DNA from: Acidimicrobiales bacterium mtb01
Lineage (GTDB): Bacteria; Actinomycetota; Acidimicrobiia; Acidimicrobiales; Ilumatobacteraceae
Reading direction: 5' to 3'
NCBI GenBank assembly: GCA_004379135.1
Contig: NBNI01000004.1
Span: 62,001-126,000, forward strand
DNA: 64,000 nucleotides
Below the pieces are notes generated by a model. The model worked only from the letters and a program-made list of their open reading frames with translations, searched no databases and had not been told where the DNA came from. The position numbers were made by a program, and so were the translations under genes. Shown piece after piece: positions 35,949 to 44,430 of the stretch (position 1 is its first letter; every line of letters starts with the position of its first letter).

Positions 35949-37631
35949 ATGAGAGACTGTCGCGTGCCTTCAGTTCGCCGTCGTGTCGCCGTGGTCGCCC
36001 TGGCCGCGCTCGCAGTGATCGGGTTCGGGGCTTCGCCCGCGAGCGCCCACGCCAGTCTCGATTCGTCCGACCCGTCGCCGTCGGCGGTGCTCGACTCGGC
36101 GCCGTCGGAGATCTTCCTCGACTTCAACGAACCGGTCACCCCGCAGGATGGTGCCGTCGAACTGGTCGATCAGACCGGTGCGGCCGTTCCGATCGACGAT
36201 GCAGTCGTTTCGCCCGACGACCCAACGGTCGTGGTGGCCGGTGGTGTTCCCGATCTCGCCGATGGTCTCTACGTCGTGGCGTGGCGCGTGGTGTCGAGCG
36301 ACGGACACGTCGCCCAGGGCGCGTTCACCTTCGAAGTGGGCGTGGGCGGCGCATCGGTCGATGCCGGGGCTCTGGTTGGCGACATCCTGTCGGGCCGTTC
36401 GGCCGCCAGCGGTATCGGCCTCGGTCTCGACATCGCCCGTTTCCTGGCCTACTTCGGCGCGATCGCCGCACTCAGCGGTCTCGCGTTCCTCGGCGCATTG
36501 GCCAACGTCCGTGCCGTGCGACGGTTGATCGGCGGCGGCCTCGTGGTGCTCGTGATCGGATCCCTCGCTCACTTCCTGTTGCAGGGTTCGTTCAGCGCCG
36601 GTGGTTCGTGGTCGGACGCCTTCGATTCCAACGCCTGGTCGAACGTGCTCGACACGCGACTCGGTCAATCGCTGATCGTCCGTCTCGTGCTCGCATGCCT
36701 GCTGGTCGTGTTGATGCTCGGCTCGGCTCCCACTCCCGACGACGATCGACGGGCTCGATTGACCACGTCGTGGTGGCGGTCGTCCACTGCGTTGGTTGGC
36801 GCCGGCGTGGTCGTCACGTTCTCGGCGGCCAGCCACGCCAGTGCGTCGTCGCCAGCCGGTGTCGCGGTGGCGGTGGACGCCCTGCACATGTCGGCCATCG
36901 TGTTGTGGGTGGGCGGATTGTTCGCCGTCGTGGCCGCACGGAACCTCGACGTGGTTCCCACGCTCTCGCGGGTGTCGACCATCGCGATGCCACTCGCCGT
37001 GGCCACGGGTGTGTGGCAGACGTGGCATCTCGGCGGCGGGCTCACGCAACTGTCCGACACCGAGTGGGGTCGCTGGCTGCTGGTCAAGGTCGCGCTGGCG
37101 GTCGTGGTCATCACGCTCGGTTTCGTGGCGCGCTTGGTGATCTCGCACGCGGCCGAACCGACCGACGCAGAACAGCTGGCCGCTGACGATGAACGCCGCC
37201 GTCGCGGTTTGCGCCGATTGATGGCGGTCGAGGTCGCGGTGGCCGTGTTGGTGCTCGGTGCCACCGCCACGCTGGTGGCCGAGTCGCCCGAAGTGCAGGC
37301 CGCACCCAACATCTTCTCGTCGCAGTTGATCCAGGGCGACCTGATCGCCGACATCACGGTCACACCGGGCAACGTCGGATCGAACGAGATCCACGTCTCG
37401 TTGTCGCCGAGCGGCGGAACCCTGCAACGCATGGAGAGCGTCACCATGCGCATGACGTACCCCGATCCGTCCTTGCCGCCGGTTGCCGTGCAGGTCACCG
37501 AGTCGGGACCCAATCACTACATCGGCCGAGTGGCGTTGTTGTCGGCCGGAACCTGGACCCTCGAAGTCCTCGTGCAGCCCGACCCGTCGCGGTCGATTCG
37601 CTTCGCGACCGACGTGCCCATCACTGGCTGA
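35949..37631 (+). CDS. CopC-CopD fusion, copper-resistance/import membrane protein
   Basis: A 560-residue protein. After a signal peptide ending near 'SPASAHA', a CopC-like beta domain (residues about 34-130) begins at the copper-binding N-terminal His and contains 'SDGHVAQGAFTFEV'. A CopD-like membrane domain with about eight helices follows, carrying 'VDALHMSAIVLWVGGLFAV' and 'TWHLGGGLTQLSDTEWGRWLLVK'. A C-terminal extracytoplasmic beta domain (about 450-560) completes it, an architecture like YcnJ. It probably binds copper outside and moves or senses it at the membrane. ATG 35949 is used; GTG 35964 would give a shorter signal peptide. It ends four bases from a convergent gene. Confidence 0.88.
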   Translation: MRDCRVPSVRRRVAVVALAALAVIGFGASPASAHASLDSSDPSPSAVLDSAPSEIFLDFNEPVTPQDGAVELVDQTGAAVPIDDAVVSPDDPTVVVAGGVPDLADGLYVVAWRVVSSDGHVAQGAFTFEVGVGGASVDAGALVGDILSGRSAASGIGLGLDIARFLAYFGAIAALSGLAFLGALANVRAVRRLIGGGLVVLVIGSLAHFLLQGSFSAGGSWSDAFDSNAWSNVLDTRLGQSLIVRLVLACLLVVLMLGSAPTPDDDRRARLTTSWWRSSTALVGAGVVVTFSAASHASASSPAGVAVAVDALHMSAIVLWVGGLFAVVAARNLDVVPTLSRVSTIAMPLAVATGVWQTWHLGGGLTQLSDTEWGRWLLVKVALAVVVITLGFVARLVISHAAEPTDAEQLAADDERRRRGLRRLMAVEVAVAVLVLGATATLVAESPEVQAAPNIFSSQLIQGDLIADITVTPGNVGSNEIHVSLSPSGGTLQRMESVTMRMTYPDPSLPPVAVQVTESGPNHYIGRVALLSAGTWTLEVLVQPDPSRSIRFATDVPITG

Positions 37632-37635
37632 TCAG

Positions 37636-38808
37636 TCAGAGGGGCGAGGTGCCGCCCGACTGAGCGAACGAACCGCCGCGGTCGGCGGCCGAGTCGAAGG
37701 CCACTCGCGTTCGCTCGAGTTCGTGCGCGAGGTCGTTGCTCACCCGGCGAGCCGATGATCCGATCCGGCCGCTCTTCACCGCGTCGTTCGCCACCGCTGT
37801 CATGGCGACGGTCGCGACGACGTTTCGCCGCGACACGGCTTCGCGGGCCACGCTGCGCTGATCGCTTCGGCGGTGATCGAGTCGGTGCACGAGCGTCGCG
37901 GCGGTGGTACCGGCGGCCACACCCGACGCCCACGAACCCCACGGCACCAACGCGACCAGATCGTCGAGTCGATCGAGGGGAGTGGCCGATCGACCGAGCA
38001 CGGCGGCGCCGACCGCGTCGATGGTTGCCCCCGATCCGGCCGCGACGTCGTCGATTCGTCGGCGACGAGCGAACTCGTCGGTGGGCAGATCGGTGAGCGC
38101 GCGATCGACCGCCATCGGAAGACCGGCCGCCACCGCGCTGGCGACGACCGGGATCGCCAGCATCTCCTGCAGCCTGTGCAATCCCTCCTGCGGCGTCCAA
38201 TCCCATTCGTGCGCCAGAGCAGTGAAGTGCAGCGCCCACGGTGCGATCACCAGCGCGAGGAGTTGATCGATGTCGCGCTCGCGCCGTTCGACGTCGGCCT
38301 GATGAGCGGCGAGCGTGGTGAAGATCGAACGGTCGGCGCGATGAGCGATGATCCCGTCGAGAAGACGACGGATGCGAGCACCAGCCACGTCGACCGGAAC
38401 CGTGCTCGGATCGGTGGCCCGCGTCCAGAAGTCGGCCACGACGGCGAAGTCGCTCACACCGTGGAGCAGGGCCACGTCGGCCCGGATGCGATCGGCGAAC
38501 GACTCCTCGGCCGAGTTGGCGATGACACGGCTCAGAATCGAGTCGGCCGCGGTGGACGACGTCACGAAGCGTTCGACCCACCAGGCCGTGCCGTCGGCGC
38601 CCCAGGCGTCGAACTCGACCGCGGCCATGCGCCCGTACGACAACTCGTGCCAGGTGCGTCGCACTCGGTCGAGATCGGCTTCCACCAGATCCAGTGCGCG
38701 GGCCACGCGCGGGTCGGCCGAGCGAACCGCGACGAGTTCGTCGCGCAGGCGAGTCAACGCCAGACCGAACGAATGCAGTCGATCGATGTCGGCGCCGAGC
38801 CAACTCAT
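37636..38808 (-). CDS. Uncharacterised alpha-helical protein, second gene of a two-gene unit
   Basis: A 390-residue protein I do not recognise. The first 90 residues are helical with an aromatic turn ('AVEFDAWGADGTAWWVERFV'), loosely like helix-turn-helix WXG100/LXG secretion domains. The middle contains 'WALHFTALAHEWDWTPQEGLHRL'. Two mildly hydrophobic Ala/Val-rich stretches ('IPVVASAVAAGLPMAV', 'WASGVAAGTTAATLV') follow, and the C-terminus is polar and Ser/Gly-rich. There is no signal peptide. The ATG overlaps the stop of the upstream 69-codon gene (ATGA), so the two are a coupled pair. A type VII-like secreted partner pair is a hypothesis, not an assignment. Confidence 0.72.
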   Translation of the reverse strand: MSWLGADIDRLHSFGLALTRLRDELVAVRSADPRVARALDLVEADLDRVRRTWHELSYGRMAAVEFDAWGADGTAWWVERFVTSSTAADSILSRVIANSAEESFADRIRADVALLHGVSDFAVVADFWTRATDPSTVPVDVAGARIRRLLDGIIAHRADRSIFTTLAAHQADVERRERDIDQLLALVIAPWALHFTALAHEWDWTPQEGLHRLQEMLAIPVVASAVAAGLPMAVDRALTDLPTDEFARRRRIDDVAAGSGATIDAVGAAVLGRSATPLDRLDDLVALVPWGSWASGVAAGTTAATLVHRLDHRRSDQRSVAREAVSRRNVVATVAMTAVANDAVKSGRIGSSARRVSNDLAHELERTRVAFDSAADRGGSFAQSGGTSPL

Positions 38809-39014
38809 CGCGGATCGATCGTCGCGGCGACCACGTCGCGGCGGAGTTCGTCGACCGCATCGGACAGCAAGTGGGCGACCAGGCGCAGGTCGTCGTCGAC
38901 CTGGTCGGCCAATGGGCCGCGCCACGTTTCTGAGCTCGACCAACGGCGGGCAGCCGGAAGTTCGTGGGCGATCAGGGCGGCCAAGCGCGCGAGCACGCGG
39001 TCATGTGGGGCCAA
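38805..39014 (-). CDS. Small helical protein, WXG100-like partner of the downstream gene
   Basis: A protein of 63-69 residues. A helix ('VLARLAALIAHELPAARRW') is followed by a turn containing Trp-Arg-Gly ('SETWRGPLADQ') and a second amphipathic helix ('DDDLRLVAHLLSDAVDELRRDV'). Helix-WxG-helix is the layout of WXG100 proteins, although this one is shorter than their usual 100 residues. The start is uncertain: TTG 39014 or GTG 38996. It overlaps the next gene as ATGA and lies 37 bases downstream of the oxidoreductase-acetyltransferase fusion gene, with which it may share a transcript. Confidence 0.6.
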   Translation of the reverse strand: MAPHDRVLARLAALIAHELPAARRWSSSETWRGPLADQVDDDLRLVAHLLSDAVDELRRDVVAATIDPR

Positions 39015-39051: not shown

Positions 39052-40557
39052 TCAGAGATCGATCACGACCACGTGGTGGGGAAGTTGCGTGACGGTCTCG
39101 ATGAAGCCGTCGCCCACGACCGTGAACCCGTGCGCACCGTAGAAATCGAGGGCAGCGTCGCGGGCGTTGGCCCACACCATGCGCACACCGGCCTCGCGCG
39201 CGGCGTCGAGTCCGGCCCGCAGGAGTCGTCCACCCAGGCCCGTTCCCTGCAGCGTGCGATCGGTCGCCATGCCGCGCAATTGCCACGCCGTGGCGTCGGG
39301 TCGATGGGCGGCCGCTCGCGCCAGCCAGGTGGACGTGGCCACGCAACGACCGCGGTGATCGAACGCGGCCAGGTGAATGGTGCCGGGGTCGTCGTCGCCG
39401 TCGAACGCCACCGTCTGATTGGCCATGCCGCGCCGCAACACGTCGAGGCGAAGCGGACGCACCTCGTCGACCGTGGCGCGGCGAATCGTGAACGAAGAGG
39501 CGCCGACGGCCACCGCGTCGCCGCCCACCGCGGCCGAGCGATACATCGCATCGACCACCTCGTGGGCGCGCAGGGCCACGCGGGCTGACGGATACGCGGG
39601 CGTGCCGGCGAGCACCGAGCGCACGAACGCACCATCGGGATTGGCGTGTCCGGGCACCAACGCGGCGGTGGCCGCGACGAGTTCGTCGCCCTGCAGCGAA
39701 CCCGATGAGCCATCGGAGTCGGTCCACGTGACCGGCCCGAACCAGTCGCCTTCGATCGCGATGTATCGCTTCTCGCAGAAGATCTCGACGCGACGCAGAC
39801 TGGGTCGGGCCAAGTTGTCGTGCCAGATGCTCGTGAGCGATCCGGTGGCCGATGGTGCGGCCCCGTCGAACGAGATCGCGGCGGTGACGACGTCCTCGAT
39901 CCCGGCGATGCCGTGGAAGTGGGCCTGCCGCGCGCTCACCGAGCCGATCGGGCCGATCACGGCGTGCAGCATGTCGACGTCGTGGATGCTGTGCTCGATG
40001 AGGGTGCCCGAGCCGGCGCGATCGCGATCGGCGCGCCAGGTCGACCCGTAGTGCCCCTGGATGGGGATGAACTGATCGTCGCGGAACACCACCGTCATGA
40101 CGCGTCCGGCCCGCGTGTCGCGCACCAGATCGCGCGCCCACAGATAGGCGGGCGAATGACGGAGCACCAGGCCCACCTGATGGATCACGGCGCTGGTCTC
40201 GAGCACGTCGGTGAGCAGTCGCGCCGAATCGAGGTCGGGGGCCAGAGGCTTCTCGCAGAACACCGCCCGTCCGCGTTCGGCCGCCAGGGCGGCCAGGCGC
40301 AGGTGCTCGGACGTCCACGTGCACACGTAGACCGCGTCGCACGAGTCGATGACGGCGATCTCCGAGTCCATCACCGTGTGTCCGCTCGCGGCGGCGAACG
40401 CCTCGGCTCGCGAGCGGTCGACGTCGTGCACACCGGCTCGTACGACATCGACGCCGAGTTCGCCTTCGATGTCACGCGTGGCGTGACGCAGGCTCTTCGA
40501 GTGATACGTGGCGATGTGGCCGGCACCGAGGAAGCCGATGCGCAGAGCCGTGGACAT
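39052..40557 (-). CDS. Gfo/Idh/MocA oxidoreductase fused to a GNAT acetyltransferase
   Basis: A 501-residue two-domain protein. Residues 1 to about 345 are a Gfo/Idh/MocA dehydrogenase, with the dinucleotide loop 'GFLGAGHIATYHSKSL', 'EKPLAPD' at 102-108 and the catalytic-region 'GTLIEHSIHDVDMLH' near 184-198. Residues about 355-501 are a GNAT N-acetyltransferase with the acetyl-CoA loop 'LQGTGLGGRLL' (436-446) and 'ALDFYGAHGFTVVG'. The reading frame is continuous, so this looks like a genuine fusion. A sugar or amino-sugar that is both oxidised and acetylated is a plausible substrate class. It starts ten bases after the thiamine ATPase stop. Confidence 0.85.
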   Translation of the reverse strand: MSTALRIGFLGAGHIATYHSKSLRHATRDIEGELGVDVVRAGVHDVDRSRAEAFAAASGHTVMDSEIAVIDSCDAVYVCTWTSEHLRLAALAAERGRAVFCEKPLAPDLDSARLLTDVLETSAVIHQVGLVLRHSPAYLWARDLVRDTRAGRVMTVVFRDDQFIPIQGHYGSTWRADRDRAGSGTLIEHSIHDVDMLHAVIGPIGSVSARQAHFHGIAGIEDVVTAAISFDGAAPSATGSLTSIWHDNLARPSLRRVEIFCEKRYIAIEGDWFGPVTWTDSDGSSGSLQGDELVAATAALVPGHANPDGAFVRSVLAGTPAYPSARVALRAHEVVDAMYRSAAVGGDAVAVGASSFTIRRATVDEVRPLRLDVLRRGMANQTVAFDGDDDPGTIHLAAFDHRGRCVATSTWLARAAAHRPDATAWQLRGMATDRTLQGTGLGGRLLRAGLDAAREAGVRMVWANARDAALDFYGAHGFTVVGDGFIETVTQLPHHVVVIDL

Positions 40558-40563
40558 GGTTCG

Positions 40564-40569
40564 AAACTA
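40564..40569 (-). promoter_or_regulatory. Predicted -10 element of the dehydrogenase-acetyltransferase gene
   Basis: TAGTTT on the minus strand is followed by six bases and the ATG at 40557. It overlaps the TAG stop of the ATPase gene, so part of the match is imposed by that codon. Confidence 0.4.
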
Positions 40570-41214
40570 CCGGGACGGTGGTTCGAGAGCCGGGGGCATA
40601 TCGATGCGCGACTGGGCGATCGCCGCGACGTCGGCCGGATCGTGCGAGACGAGCAACGCGGTGGTGCCGGAGTCCCGCAGTACACGATCGACCATGACGG
40701 CCAGTTGATCGTGCAACGACCGGTCGAGTCCGGTGAACGGTTCGTCCAGAAGGAGCACGCGCGGTGACGGAGCGAGTGCGCGGGCCAGGGCCACGCGCTT
40801 GGCTTCGCCGCCCGACAACGTGGCCACGTCCTGGTCGCGCCGATCACCAAGTTGAACTCGTTCGAGCAGTTCGTCGACGCGCTGGCCGATCCGACCGGCG
40901 TCCCAGCCGAGTACCCGCAAGCCGTATCCGATGTTGCGGGCCACGTTCATGTGCGGGAACAACTGGTTGTCCTGGAAGACGAGGCCGATCGATCGGCGAT
41001 GGGTGGGCGTGCTCGTGATGTCGGCACCGTCGACTTCCACCGCGCCGGACCGCACCGGGACGAGCCCGGCGATGGCGCGCAGCAACGTGGTCTTGCCCGA
41101 ACCCGACGGCCCGCACACGGCGAGGGTGCGGCCGGTGTCGACGTGCAGTGAGACGCCGTCGATGATGCGACGGCCGTCGAGGTCGACCACGAGCGAGCGA
41201 ACCGCGAGGCTCAA
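40567..41214 (-). CDS. Thiamine ABC transporter ATP-binding protein
   Basis: A 215-residue ABC ATPase with Walker A 'GPSGSGKTT' (about residues 30-38), Q-loop 'VFQDNQLFPHM', signature 'LSGGEAKR', Walker B 'VLLLDEPFTGLD' and the H-loop 'LVSHDPAD'. It drives the ThiP-like permease. The start is TTG 41214, overlapping the permease stop as TTGA; any longer start would be inside the permease gene. It is the last gene of thiN-thiB-thiP-ATPase, a ThiQ/ThiZ-type component. Confidence 0.9.
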   Translation of the reverse strand: MSLAVRSLVVDLDGRRIIDGVSLHVDTGRTLAVCGPSGSGKTTLLRAIAGLVPVRSGAVEVDGADITSTPTHRRSIGLVFQDNQLFPHMNVARNIGYGLRVLGWDAGRIGQRVDELLERVQLGDRRDQDVATLSGGEAKRVALARALAPSPRVLLLDEPFTGLDRSLHDQLAVMVDRVLRDSGTTALLVSHDPADVAAIAQSRIDMPPALEPPSR

Positions 41215-42737
41215 GTGCGCACCGACCGATCGACCGCGGTCACCGCGACCACGGTGAGGACGAGCAATACCGAGGCGACCGCGAAGGCGGTCATGTGAGG
41301 CAGTGATCCGGCGCGGCCGAGAAGAGTGTCGACCACGATCGGCAACGTGGTGGTGTCGCGCCGGGTGAGAAAGCTGGTGGCACCGAATTCGCCGATCGAC
41401 ATCGTGAGCGAGAACGCCGACGCGGTGGCGACGGCCGGGCGCAGGAGCGGCAGATCGATGTCGATCCATCGGCGCCAGGGCGAGGCTCCGAGCGTCGCGG
41501 CGGCTTGGGCCAGGCCGGGGGGAATCGCCTCCACCATCGGAACGACCGCGCGGACGACGAAGGGGAGGGCGACGGCCGCATGCACAAGTGGGACGAGCCA
41601 CCACTCGCCGCGCACGTCGAGGATCCCGGTGTCGTAGGTGACGATGATGCCCAGACCCACCACGACCGCCGACGCACCGAGGGGTAGCGAGGCGACGAAG
41701 TCGGCGAGACGCGACGACGACGACACGGCGGCCCGCGCGAGGGCGACACCGAGCGGCACCGCGACCGACGCGGCGAGCACCGCGAACACGAGCGAGTTGA
41801 CGATCGCGTCACCGATGTCCACCGGCACACGCAAGCCGTCGCCGCCGGTGAACAACGCGCGCCAACCCGCGGTCGACCAACCGTCGGTGGATCGGAACGA
41901 CGCGAGCACGAGTGCGGCCGGCACGGCCATGAACGCCGCGACGAGAGCCCACACGGCGACACCGACGCCGATGGGTGCGCGGCGCCGGCGAGCCGTCGTG
42001 ATGCTCGAACGCCGCGCGGCCGAACGCGACCACACGGCGAACAACACGACGATCACCAGTGTTTGAGCGACGGCGAGAACCGTCGCACCCGACACATCGG
42101 CCAGATCGACGGCGCGTCGATAGATCTCGACGTCGAGAGTCGAGCGACCCGGGCCGCCGAGCAGCCGAACGACCCCGTACGACGTCGCACACATCACGAA
42201 CACCAATCCGGCCGCACCGGCCACGGCCGGACGCAGGAGAGGCCAGACGACGGTGCGCGCGACGGTGAGCGGAGACGCACCGAGCGTGCGCGCAGCATCG
42301 AGAAGATGTTCGTCGACAGCGGTCCAGGTCGGCACGACGGTGCGCACGACGACCGACACGTTGAAGAACACGTGGGCGAGCACGATCGCCAGCACCGAGC
42401 GGTCGAATCGATCGGGAAGGGCGGCGAGAAAGGCGGCGCCCACGACCACGGTGGGCAGAACGAACGGCACCGTGAGTGCGGCCAGTGCGACACGTCGACC
42501 GGGCAGGTCGAATCGCGACAACGCCCAGGCCGGAGCCAGGCCCACCACGACGGCGGCGAGCGTGGACACCACACCTTGCCAGAGCGAGAACCACACGGCT
42601 TCGCGCACTCCGCTGCGCGACCACACCGCGGTGATGTCGGATCCGCGGAGCGAGTCGACGGCCAGGCCGACGAGCGGTACCACAACCCCCACCGCCACCA
42701 GAGCGGTGGCACCGATCCAGCGCAGCCGGGCGATCAC
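41211..42737 (-). CDS. thiP: Thiamine ABC transporter permease (fused two-domain)
   Basis: A 508-residue permease with two repeats of about six helices each, each carrying an EAA-type loop ('DAARTLGASPLTVARTVVWPLLRP' region and 'QAAATLGASPWRRWIDIDLPLLRP' region). This double-permease architecture is typical of ThiP and of iron FbpB proteins. The TPP riboswitch and ThiN upstream favour thiamine. The start is GTG 42737, overlapping the thiB stop as GTGA; the extended start at 42770 lies inside thiB. Confidence 0.9.
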   Translation of the reverse strand: MIARLRWIGATALVAVGVVVPLVGLAVDSLRGSDITAVWSRSGVREAVWFSLWQGVVSTLAAVVVGLAPAWALSRFDLPGRRVALAALTVPFVLPTVVVGAAFLAALPDRFDRSVLAIVLAHVFFNVSVVVRTVVPTWTAVDEHLLDAARTLGASPLTVARTVVWPLLRPAVAGAAGLVFVMCATSYGVVRLLGGPGRSTLDVEIYRRAVDLADVSGATVLAVAQTLVIVVLFAVWSRSAARRSSITTARRRRAPIGVGVAVWALVAAFMAVPAALVLASFRSTDGWSTAGWRALFTGGDGLRVPVDIGDAIVNSLVFAVLAASVAVPLGVALARAAVSSSSRLADFVASLPLGASAVVVGLGIIVTYDTGILDVRGEWWLVPLVHAAVALPFVVRAVVPMVEAIPPGLAQAAATLGASPWRRWIDIDLPLLRPAVATASAFSLTMSIGEFGATSFLTRRDTTTLPIVVDTLLGRAGSLPHMTAFAVASVLLVLTVVAVTAVDRSVRT

Positions 42738-43783
42738 GGAAGCGCGATCTCCGACCACGTCTCGAGCCACGCGGTGCGATTGGCGGCGATCGTCGCGGAG
42801 TCGAGAACCAACGACGACGTGACGGTGGGTGCGTGGCGGACGAACGACTCGGGCAGCGCGGTGGAGGTGTTAGCCGGATACACGAAGAGGCTCTCGGGCA
42901 GCAGCGACTGGAATTCGTCGCTCACGAGGTAGTCGACGAGGAGGCGAGCGGCGTCGGCGTGATCGGTGCCGCGGAGGACACCAGCGAACTCGATCTGTCG
43001 GAAGCACGTGGACGTCATCACACCGGTGGGCGCGGCGGTGTCGGCGGGCAGAGGCGGATCGGCGAACAGCACCTCGGCCGGCGGGCTCGACGCGTAACTC
43101 AGCACGAGCGGACGGTCGCCGCCGTATCGACTGAACGCGGTGTAGTAGGCGTCGCTCCAACCGTCGACCACCAGTACGTCGTTGGCAACCAGGCGCGACC
43201 AGTAGTCGGGCCACGCTTCGTCGAATTGCACGATGGTGGCGAGGAGGAAGGCCAGGCCCGGCGACGACGATGTCGCACTCGGCACCACGAGCAGTCCCGC
43301 GTAGGCCGGATCGGCGAGATCGTCGAACGAGGTGGGTGCCGGCAACCCGAGCGCGTCGAGCGCCGCGATGTCGTAGTTGACGCAAACGTCGCCATAATCG
43401 ACTGGGGTGACGGTGTCGGCGCCGGCCGCGACGAGCGACGGCTCCAGCGGATGCGCGTTCGAGACGTAGGGGTCGAACACCTCGGCTTCGACTGCGCGCG
43501 ACAACAACGTGTTGTCGACCCCCCACAGCACGTCACCTTCGGGATTGCCGGCGGTGAGCGCGGCCTTGGCCACGAGTTCGCCGGCGTCGCCGCCGACCGC
43601 CACCTCGACCTCGATGCCGGTGGCCGCGGTGAACGCGTCGAAGGCACCATCGGGCGGAGTGAACGAGTCGTACGCCACCAGGACGAGACGCTCGGGCTTG
43701 GACGACGAGTCGTCGCCGCACGCGACGAGCGTGGCGAGCACCACTCCCACGGTGACGACCAACGGAATGCGTGAGTGCCTCAT
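42734..43783 (-). CDS. thiB: Thiamine-binding lipoprotein of an ABC importer
   Basis: A 349-residue substrate-binding protein. A lipoprotein signal peptide ends in 'LVACGDD' with Cys22. The rest has the ThiB-type layout: 'LVLVAYDSFTPPDGAFDAFTAATGIEVEV', 'NPEGDVLWGVDNTLLSRA', 'VDYGDVCVNYD' and 'PADTAAPTGVMTSTCFRQIEF'. It captures thiamine or a phosphate ester outside the membrane. The ATG at 43783 overlaps the thiN stop. It is under the TPP riboswitch together with thiN. Confidence 0.9.
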   Translation of the reverse strand: MRHSRIPLVVTVGVVLATLVACGDDSSSKPERLVLVAYDSFTPPDGAFDAFTAATGIEVEVAVGGDAGELVAKAALTAGNPEGDVLWGVDNTLLSRAVEAEVFDPYVSNAHPLEPSLVAAGADTVTPVDYGDVCVNYDIAALDALGLPAPTSFDDLADPAYAGLLVVPSATSSSPGLAFLLATIVQFDEAWPDYWSRLVANDVLVVDGWSDAYYTAFSRYGGDRPLVLSYASSPPAEVLFADPPLPADTAAPTGVMTSTCFRQIEFAGVLRGTDHADAARLLVDYLVSDEFQSLLPESLFVYPANTSTALPESFVRHAPTVTSSLVLDSATIAANRTAWLETWSEIALP

Positions 43784-44430
43784 GCGGTTCCTTTCGGCAG
43801 GACGACGCCGACGCAACCCGACGCGACCGACACGTTCACGGTCTCCGCGACGGCGACGTTGCTCACGCCGCGCGCGCGACTTCCTTCGAGTGATGCGTTT
43901 TCAAGGGTCCAACGCAGCCCGGTGGTGGTCACGCCGTGGGCCGAGCCGGCCAGTGGAACGAGGCTCACCGTTCGTCCGACTTCGGTGGTGAACCGCACCT
44001 GTCGACCGCCGTGCACGATATGCATGCGATCGTCGCCGACCCACGCGGTGAGACGTTCGAGACGGCCGAGGTCGGGTGCGGCCAGGGCGGCCAGGACACC
44101 GAGCACGTGATCGAATCGGTCGCCGCCGCCCCACAGAACCGTGAGAGACGTGGCGCCGTCGGCGAGCGCGTGGGCGAGAGCGAGTTCGGTGTCGGTGAAG
44201 TCCTTGTCGGGGTGGGCCTCCACGATTCGCGACCCGTGGGCGCGCGCCCTGTCGACGTCGGCGATCGAATCCATGTCGCCGATCACGACGTGCGGAACGA
44301 GGTCGAGACCCAGCGCATGGTCGAAACCCGAGTCGGCGCAGATGATGACGTCGACGGGTTCGATGCCGTCGAGGGCGTGGCGACGCGGAGCGTCACCGCC
44401 GATGACGAGAAGTGCGTGTCGTTGGTCCAT
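43780..44430 (-). CDS. thiN: Thiamine pyrophosphokinase
   Basis: A 216-residue enzyme that converts imported thiamine directly to TPP. 'CADSGFDHALGLDLVPHVVIGDMDSI' provides the substrate and magnesium residues, 'HPDKDFTDTELAL' is the second motif, and the beta-sandwich C-terminal half contains 'TTTGLRWTLENASL'. It is the first gene of the thiamine salvage operon. The ribosome-binding site GGAGGG, about seven bases before the ATG, is part of the 3' strand of the TPP riboswitch, so translation should fall when TPP is bound. Confidence 0.95.
   Translation of the reverse strand: MDQRHALLVIGGDAPRRHALDGIEPVDVIICADSGFDHALGLDLVPHVVIGDMDSIADVDRARAHGSRIVEAHPDKDFTDTELALAHALADGATSLTVLWGGGDRFDHVLGVLAALAAPDLGRLERLTAWVGDDRMHIVHGGRQVRFTTEVGRTVSLVPLAGSAHGVTTTGLRWTLENASLEGSRARGVSNVAVAETVNVSVASGCVGVVLPKGTA

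What the first reader, a model, noticed from the sequence alone, without database searches (positions are those of the whole stretch)
37636..39014. Coupled two-gene unit with a WXG100-like small partner and an unrecognised 390-residue protein
The small protein has helix-Trp-Arg-Gly-helix architecture. The overlapping (ATGA) larger protein begins with a helical, aromatic-turn domain and contains two Ala/Val-rich stretches but no known enzyme motif. Paired WXG-type proteins encoded together are typical of type VII-like secretion substrates. No secretion ATPase is in this window, so if real this is an orphan substrate pair, perhaps of a new family. It is the best candidate here for an undescribed system.
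Basis: inference. Interest (0 to 1): 0.6.

Follow-up and report, generated by a model that had tools for sequence, protein, structure and literature searches.

The report
Scattered type VII secretion partner pair
Two overlapping genes in an uncultured actinobacterium encode a WXG-type helical hairpin and a large all-helical partner that tend to be kept or lost together with an unlinked secretion motor and WXG100 gene, which points to an undescribed, scattered kind of type VII secretion.

Summary
Both genes evolve as coding (dN/dS 0.08-0.37) and overlap by ATGA. The pair recurs at one chromosomal site across the family: large-protein profile hits in 73 of 221 genomes (18 of 27 genera); a small partner just upstream at 54 of 58 inspected loci. 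Both proteins are predicted helical and resemble WXG100 hairpins weakly, above shuffled controls. "Orphan" needs revising: the genome encodes an FHA-bearing EssC-like ATPase and a WXG100-type protein at two other loci. The three tend to co-occur; of 79 good genomes 30 have all three, 30 none, 19 a mixture. In one lineage the motor is undetected, the pair site is empty and the WXG100 gene is decayed. Best reading: a heterodimeric, substrate-like pair of a dispersed type VII-like system. EssB was not found; EccB was not found with an uninformative control; other published subtypes were not tested. Export is not shown; three good genomes with a long pair match lack a detected motor; the large protein's body has no detected relative outside the family, known fold or enzyme motif.

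The parts
38805..38996 (-). small gene, 63-aa WXG-like helical hairpin, GTG start (upstream TTG at 39014 not conserved)
38913..38924 (-). codons for W25-R-G27-P28 in the inter-helix turn
   Evidence: sequence; alignment; model
37636..38808 (-). large gene, 390-aa all-helical protein; residues about 1-71 form a helical hairpin, the rest a helical-repeat-like body
38805..38808 (-). ATGA stop/start overlap of small and large genes
   Evidence: overlaps or near-overlaps in other genera
39052..40557 (-). Gfo/Idh/MocA oxidoreductase fused to GNAT acetyltransferase, conserved upstream neighbour (GNAT part)
   Evidence: Pfam
40567..43816 (-). ABC transporter genes (ATPase, permease, solute-binding protein) of the same operon-like run
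35949..37631 (+). CopC-CopD protein, convergent downstream neighbour; a similar gene directly follows GNAT in several relatives without the pair

Best explanation
The two proteins most likely form a helical heterodimer in the manner of EsxA-EsxB, PE-PPE or LXG-Lap pairs: the small W-x-G hairpin packs on the N-terminal hairpin of the large protein (inferred). The complex is recognised by an EssC-like motor (FHA-like domain, membrane segment, FtsK/SpoIIIE ATPase domains) encoded elsewhere in the genome and is moved to or across the membrane together with, or dependent on, a separate WXG100-type protein encoded at a third locus (inferred). What is shown: the pair, its conservation, the presence of the other two genes, their correlated presence and, in one lineage, joint loss or decay, and the predicted folds. 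Because the large protein is found at one place in most genomes (two in G006 and G147), at a recurrent site, with no immunity-like gene beside it in the loci read and no recognisable enzymatic domain, I think it is more likely a constitutive co-secreted or surface/structural component than a polymorphic toxin.
For: Pair at a recurrent site across the family. Small-protein relatives hit PPE (5 of 23 members, best E 0.0012), WXG100 (2 of 23, 0.0025), EspC (2), T7SS_signal (1) and TIGR03930 (2, 0.0012) weakly. Against a profile of the family's WXG100-type protein, 17 of 25 small proteins and 9 of 23 large N-termini exceed the 99th percentile of shuffles, 0 of 23 for an inner stretch of the large protein; the set means (6.0 and 3.1 bits) exceed all 200 shuffled-set means. 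hhalign registers W-x-G-P on W-x-G-P and the large N-terminus on the WXG100 N-terminus. EssC-like ATPase at G000:C2:339896-343210; for a longer relative the nearest solved chains include EccC, YukB and EccC5. WXG100-type gene at G000:C4:60802-61074. Three-way co-occurrence. Genus g14: two genomes without detected EssC (G091, G096) have an empty pair site and a decayed WXG100 gene, while six EssC-bearing genomes of that genus have a small gene and an overlapping long frame at the same site.
Against: No secretion data. Four good genomes have pair-profile and WXG100 hits but no EssC found: G219, G229, G231, and G029, where only the large N-terminus aligns. Of 11 good genomes with EssC but no profile hit for the pair, six show a diverged pair, one only the small gene (G034), one is unclear (G138), one has no pair at the site (G131), one unresolved (G100), one had no GNAT match (G134). 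No W in the recognised small proteins of G029 and G138 or in the upstream frames of G013, G016 and G023. No conserved Y/FxxxD/E signal: 1 of 25 small proteins. Foldseek matches of both models are not significant. hhalign probabilities are only 21-26%, and single shuffles reach higher bit scores than the best real sequence. PF06013 itself finds nothing in the window's genome. Co-occurrence statistics ignore shared ancestry. EssB absent in 24 of 24 genus genomes with a ringing control, EccB in 24 of 24 with a silent control.
Confidence: 0.58

Rival explanations
1. The pair is an apparatus part or adaptor of the EssC/WXG100 machine (for example a scaffold replacing the missing EssB/EccB-type components), not a substrate.
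For: Mostly one locus per genome, recurrent site, absent where the motor is absent at the 11 such sites read; EssB not found; helical-repeat-like body with no fold or enzyme match.
Against: No clear membrane segment (highest 19-residue mean hydropathy 2.06 in the window protein, 0.92-2.05 in 22 relatives); three good genomes keep a long pair match without a detected motor; the C-terminal region diverges so far that in distant genera mostly only the first 60-100 residues align.
Confidence: 0.25
2. The pair belongs to the ABC transporter/GNAT operon beside it and has nothing to do with secretion; the WXG look is a generic helical hairpin.
For: Same-strand position after the GNAT gene, and after ABC transporter genes in many of the loci read; Foldseek and VIA rows of the small model include unrelated hairpins.
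Against: All 11 readable sites in genomes without detected EssC and without a pair-profile hit keep a GNAT gene but show no pair; W-x-G in 42 of 54 recognised small proteins; similarity to the family's WXG100-type protein above shuffles for both partners as sets.
Confidence: 0.12
3. The large protein is an LXG-like effector (toxin) and the small protein its Lap-type targeting factor.
For: Gene arrangement resembles Lap-LXG loci as described in PMC9600955 (passages read); fast-evolving C-terminal part.
Against: No LXG Pfam match, no immunity-like gene next to it in the loci I read, no PDB sequence or fold match, mostly one copy at one site rather than a polymorphic set.
Confidence: 0.05

Closest known systems
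T7SS subtypes a-j (PMC11217815; abstract, outline and 12 passages seen)
   Same: EccC/EssC-type ATPase plus WXG100 protein are the shared core; the passages state FHA domains on the ATPase of T7SSb and of the new systems other than c, g and h; extra small WXG100-related proteins beside candidate substrates
   Different: there the subtypes rest on gene clusters; here motor, WXG100 and pair lie at three separate loci; EssB was not found, EccB not found with a silent control; of the ten subtypes only a and d are placed in Actinomycetota, and the parts special to d were not searched here
LXG effectors with Lap1/Lap2 targeting factors (PMC9600955, passages seen)
   Same: small WXG100-like helical protein encoded next to a larger protein with a helical N-terminal part
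   Different: no LXG match, one small partner, W-x-G mostly kept in the small one, no conserved FxxxD, no toxin or immunity gene recognised
PE-PPE and EsxA-EsxB heterodimers (PMC3935865 passages; structures listed)
   Same: two-gene unit, helical hairpins, W-x-G; PPE is the commonest weak Pfam hit of the small-protein family
   Different: large partner is all-helical over 390-612 aa with no PPE match, no conserved Y/FxxxD/E, not beside ESX genes in the loci read

Membership tests
WXG100 (PF06013), small protein | Pfam or NCBIfam score over the curated cut-off | tested here: not met
   window protein 0 hits; 2 of 23 members reach only E 0.0025 at best (PF06013) and 2 of 23 E 0.0012 at best (TIGR03930)
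WXG100 (PF06013), small protein | helix - W-x-G turn - helix | tested here: met
   model (one protein); W-x-G in 42 of 54 recognised small proteins, W in 52 of 54; three more genus members show an upstream frame without W
WXG100 (PF06013), small protein | about 100 residues | tested here: not met
   63 aa here, 63-66 in the 13 genus members aligned, 82-109 in the 12 from other genera
WXG100 (PF06013), small protein | forms a dimer and is exported by a T7SS | not testable with these tools
   no complex prediction or secretion data available
LXG domain, large protein | match to the LXG profile | tested here: not met
   no LXG hit for P0001 or the 23 members of A3
PPE, large protein | match to the PPE profile | tested here: not met
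   0 of 23 large proteins; weak PPE hits fall on the small proteins instead
T7SS in general | EccC/EssC-type membrane ATPase in the genome | tested here: met
   1104-aa protein with FtsK_SpoIIIE 1.1e-31, a 46-residue hydrophobic run at 139-184, FHA-like start below the curated cut-offs (FHA 0.0083, Yop-YscD_cpl 1e-4; the latter over cut-off in relative L105); below the TIGR03925 EccC_b cut-off
T7SS in general | WXG100 protein in the genome | tested here: met
   G000:C4:60802-61074, E 6.4e-49 to profile A6; PF06013 finds 0 in this genome and two genus orthologues reach it at 1.3e-4 and 4.2e-4, below its cut-off
T7SSb | EssB/YukC | tested here: not met
   0 of 24 genus genomes, control B. subtilis rings
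T7SSa | EccB | tested here: inconclusive
   0 of 24 genus genomes, but no control rang
T7SSd | kinase TsdD, TsdH and TsdI clustered with TsdA and TsdC | not tested
   no profile for these components was searched; no such cluster noticed in the stretches read around the ATPase

The most novel reading that the evidence does not exclude
An undescribed type VII secretion subtype of actinobacteria whose parts are scattered over the chromosome: an FHA-bearing EssC-like motor, a WXG100 protein and a WXG-like heterodimer whose large partner carries a new all-helical body, seen by profile in 18 of 27 genera of one family, kept at one site and lost as a set in several lineages.
Probability: 0.45. Interest if true: 0.75.

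Novelty: new variant of a known kind. Interest (0 to 1): 0.6.

Why it matters
The survey I saw (PMC11217815) finds type VII systems through gene clusters. If a working system can be scattered over three loci, such surveys miss it, and the minimal set of parts (motor, WXG100, partner pair, no detected EssB) becomes testable. The pair also gives a group of uncultured actinobacteria a concrete candidate for a surface or secreted protein; my full-text searches for type VII secretion together with Acidimicrobiia or Ilumatobacter, names I connect with this family from memory only, found no paper.

Tried and rejected
Pfam and NCBIfam scans of the large protein (window and 23-member alignment) gave nothing meaningful. 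PDB sequence searches with the small and large profiles gave nothing below E 0.19. Foldseek and VIA-align of the large model gave generic helical rows (best Foldseek E 0.038, best VIA Z 8.2 at 11.1 A). Foldseek of the small model lists 3fav, HP0062 and EsxGH, but at E 3-6, mixed with unrelated hairpins; VIA gives Z 6.7 for EsxGH and 6.5 for CFP10-ESAT6, tied with unrelated rows. Outside the family, the large-protein profile found one weak hit (E 7e-4, 108-aa frame) in a 397-genome sample of the order, with at most 3 candidates scored per genome; I take it for chance. Pair presence in G012 by the single-sequence search (E 4.9e-4) was dropped because the profile search did not support it. A conserved Y/FxxxD/E motif was looked for and not found. 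Homology of the small to the large protein was not supported (P 0.35). A paper search with Acidimicrobiales needed only 2 of 4 terms (754 papers, 8 listed, none of the 8 with that word) and says little.

Rows dropped before counts: the small-protein alignments A2 and A4 were assembled from loci where I had already seen a W-x-G, leaving out L032, L037 and L038, so their 100% W-x-G is a selection effect; one search is the fairer count (58 loci for which I held the region, not all 73 profile-positive genomes; 54 with a small partner at E <= 1e-3, part of them in the training alignment; the exceptions are G013, G016, G023 and one of two loci of G147). In one search one of the 43 W-x-G flags (G147a, E 0.88) is a spurious hit and is not counted. 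The EssC list (85 of 221) uses my own cut-off of E < 1e-50, because FtsK alone gives about 1e-21 to 1e-29; a fragment at a contig end (G103, E 3.5e-29, C-terminal part) is therefore counted as absent. Lists were typed by hand from the tables into the scripts. In one search the first row began one codon early (64 aa); the scans used that row; one search corrected it. One search treated minus-strand loci in the wrong orientation; one search replaces it.

Full report
What is there. On the minus strand the window holds a small gene and a 390-codon gene that overlap by ATGA. The small gene's TTG start at 39014 is not conserved; an in-frame GTG at 38996 is shared by the two nearest relatives, giving a 63-residue protein. 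Between the window and those two relatives dN/dS is 0.13-0.17 for the large gene and 0.08-0.37 for the small one; the other two forward frames give 1.9-3.9 (large) and 1.0-1.9 (small), and the antisense frames of the large gene 1.9, 0.30 (the mirror frame, as I read it) and 3.9. The genes follow, on the same strand, an ABC transporter (solute-binding protein, permease, ATPase) and a Gfo/Idh/MocA-GNAT fusion; a CopC-CopD gene faces them from the other side.

Structure. The AlphaFold2 model of the small protein is a hairpin, helices 2-18 and 28-60, with W25-R-G27-P28 in the turn (pLDDT 84.2). The large model is entirely helical: a long hairpin (8-31, 33-71) followed by a helical body (pLDDT 81.5, pTM 0.77, low around 280-304). 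No PDB fold matches the large model below E 0.03; VIA rows are generic. Foldseek rows of the small model include CFP10-ESAT6, HP0062 and EsxGH but are not significant.

Relatives. With the window protein alone, 19 of 61 genomes match, all 19 among the 24 genomes of the window's genus, one of them weak and later dropped. A profile of 15 genus members reaches 34 of 221 genomes of the family, 19 of them in the genus, and a profile of 23 reaches 73 of 221 in 18 of 27 genera. In the most distant of these mostly only the first 60-100 residues align; the large frames of other genera are about 560-615 aa in most cases read. In 397 genomes sampled from the order, one weak hit lies outside the family. 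A profile of the small protein finds a partner just upstream at 54 of 58 inspected loci (E <= 1e-3; part of these were used to build the profile). W-x-G is kept in 42 of the 54, W in 52; G013, G016 and G023 of the window's own genus show an upstream reading frame without W. The two genes overlap or nearly touch in most loci where I fixed both ends. The upstream neighbour is a GNAT gene in the loci where I could read it (one search was cut).

Is it WXG-like? Formal membership fails: no curated cut-off is reached. Weak hits of the small-protein relatives nevertheless include several type VII families (PPE in 5 of 23, WXG100 in 2, EspC in 2, T7SS_signal in 1, TIGR03930 in 2) among unrelated single-member hits. 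Compared with a profile of the family's own WXG100-type protein, 17 of 25 small proteins and 9 of 23 large N-termini score above the 99th percentile of shuffled copies, and the means of both sets exceed all 200 shuffled sets; an inner stretch of the large protein does neither (0 of 23). Single shuffles can score higher than the best real sequence, so no one sequence is significant alone, and related sequences are not independent votes. Profile-profile alignment places W-x-G-P on W-x-G-P (P 7e-4) and the N-terminus of the large protein on the N-terminus of the WXG100 (P 1e-3), with probabilities of only 21-26%.

The rest of the machine is elsewhere in the genome. A 1104-residue protein at contig 2 (G000:C2:339896-343210, minus strand) has an FHA-like start (FHA 0.0083, Yop-YscD_cpl 1e-4, both below cut-off), a 46-residue hydrophobic run at 139-184, long enough for two membrane helices, and FtsK/SpoIIIE domains (1.1e-31). 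For a longer relative (L105) the nearest solved chains are an FtsK/SpoIIIE-type protein 4nh0 (7e-68; known to me from memory as an actinobacterial EccC), YukB and EccC5. A WXG100-type gene lies on contig 4 (G000:C4:60802-61074, E 6.4e-49), although PF06013 itself does not find it. I noticed no recognisable type VII genes beside either in the stretches read; the ATPase has a divergently transcribed neighbour, GerE/LuxR-like over cut-off in one genome. EssB was found in 0 of 24 genus genomes while the control rang; EccB in 0 of 24, but its control was silent.

Co-occurrence. By profile, pair, EssC-like ATPase (my cut-off) and WXG100 are present in 73, 85 and 88 of 221 genomes; 56 have all three and 118 none. 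Among the 79 genomes at least 90% complete, 30 have all three, 30 none, 9 ATPase and WXG100 only, 4 pair and WXG100 only, 2 pair and ATPase only, 2 WXG100 only, 2 ATPase only. Fisher tests on the 79 give P 1.6e-8 (pair-ATPase) and 1.6e-10 (pair-WXG100), ignoring shared ancestry. I then asked what lies behind the GNAT gene in 34 pair-negative genomes: 26 had a match and 20 sites could be read. Of 11 without the ATPase, none shows a pair; an opposite-strand gene, CopC-CopD-like or another, follows directly. Of 9 with the ATPase, 6 (all genus g14) show a small gene and an overlapping long frame too diverged for the profile, 1 shows the small gene only (G034), 1 is unclear (G138), 1 has no pair (G131). 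In g14, G091 and G096 lack a detected ATPase and the pair, and their WXG100 gene is decayed, as is that of G092, whose site was not read. In the window's genus, G015 has no pair at the site, and neither ATPase nor WXG100 was found (77% complete).

Results against. G219, G229 and G231 are 93-97% complete and have a long pair-profile match and WXG100 but no detected ATPase; G029 has WXG100, no ATPase and only an N-terminal match. Export was not and could not be tested. No Y/FxxxD/E signal is conserved (1 of 25 small proteins). No membrane or channel part other than the ATPase was identified.

Comparison with what is known. The 2024 survey (PMC11217815; abstract and 12 passages seen) describes ten subtypes by gene clusters, with the ATPase throughout and a WXG100 protein in all but possibly subtype i; only a and d are placed in Actinomycetota. 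The present set has the shared core, but not in a cluster, and fails the EssB test for subtype b; a is inconclusive, and d was not tested for its own parts. It would work most like LXG-Lap (PMC9600955, passages) or PE-PPE pairs but is a member of neither by profile. My searches for type VII secretion with Acidimicrobiia or Ilumatobacter found no paper; placing this family near those names is recall, not a tool result. The two named close records are titled 'MAG: Actinomycetota bacterium'.

Verdict. The most likely role is a heterodimeric, co-secreted or surface component of a dispersed type VII-like system; an apparatus or adaptor role is the main rival.

Noticed in passing
G000:C2:339896-343210 (L102:2897-6211, minus): EssC-like FHA-FtsK ATPase at a locus without other recognised type VII genes; only the first ATPase domain has a canonical Walker A (GTTGSGKS) by my pattern.
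   Followed up: yes
L105:11109-11915, L108:2228-3028, L104:11255-12061: A 266-268-aa gene, GerE/LuxR-like over cut-off in one genome and only weakly so in two others, is divergently transcribed next to the EssC-like gene; possible regulator.
   Followed up: partly
L200, L201, L202 (G091, G092, G096): The WXG100-type gene is decayed (frame break, stop, or unrecognisable N-terminal third) in three genomes of one genus in which no EssC-like gene was detected.
   Followed up: yes
G134:C19, C20, C23: One genome of the family has an EccC over the curated TIGR03925 cut-off and five PF06013 matches, three over the cut-off, so a canonical-looking type VII system may exist in the family too.
   Followed up: no
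L025 and L028 (G006:C91 and C166); L149 and L150 (G147): G006 carries two different copies of the small-large pair; G147 has two loci with a large-protein N-terminal match, one without a recognised small partner.
   Followed up: no
window 39052-40557: Gfo/Idh/MocA dehydrogenase fused to a GNAT domain; in many of the other genomes searched only the GNAT part matches, as a shorter frame.
   Followed up: partly
L164:2595-2831: A 78-aa gene follows the WXG100-type gene; it has no Pfam match but from memory looks like a thiamine-binding-type small protein, while the pair sits beside a transporter that from memory looks like thiamine/iron type.
   Followed up: partly
L032, L037, L038 (G023, G013, G016): The reading frame upstream of the large gene keeps a G-P but lacks the tryptophan of W-x-G.
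   Followed up: partly
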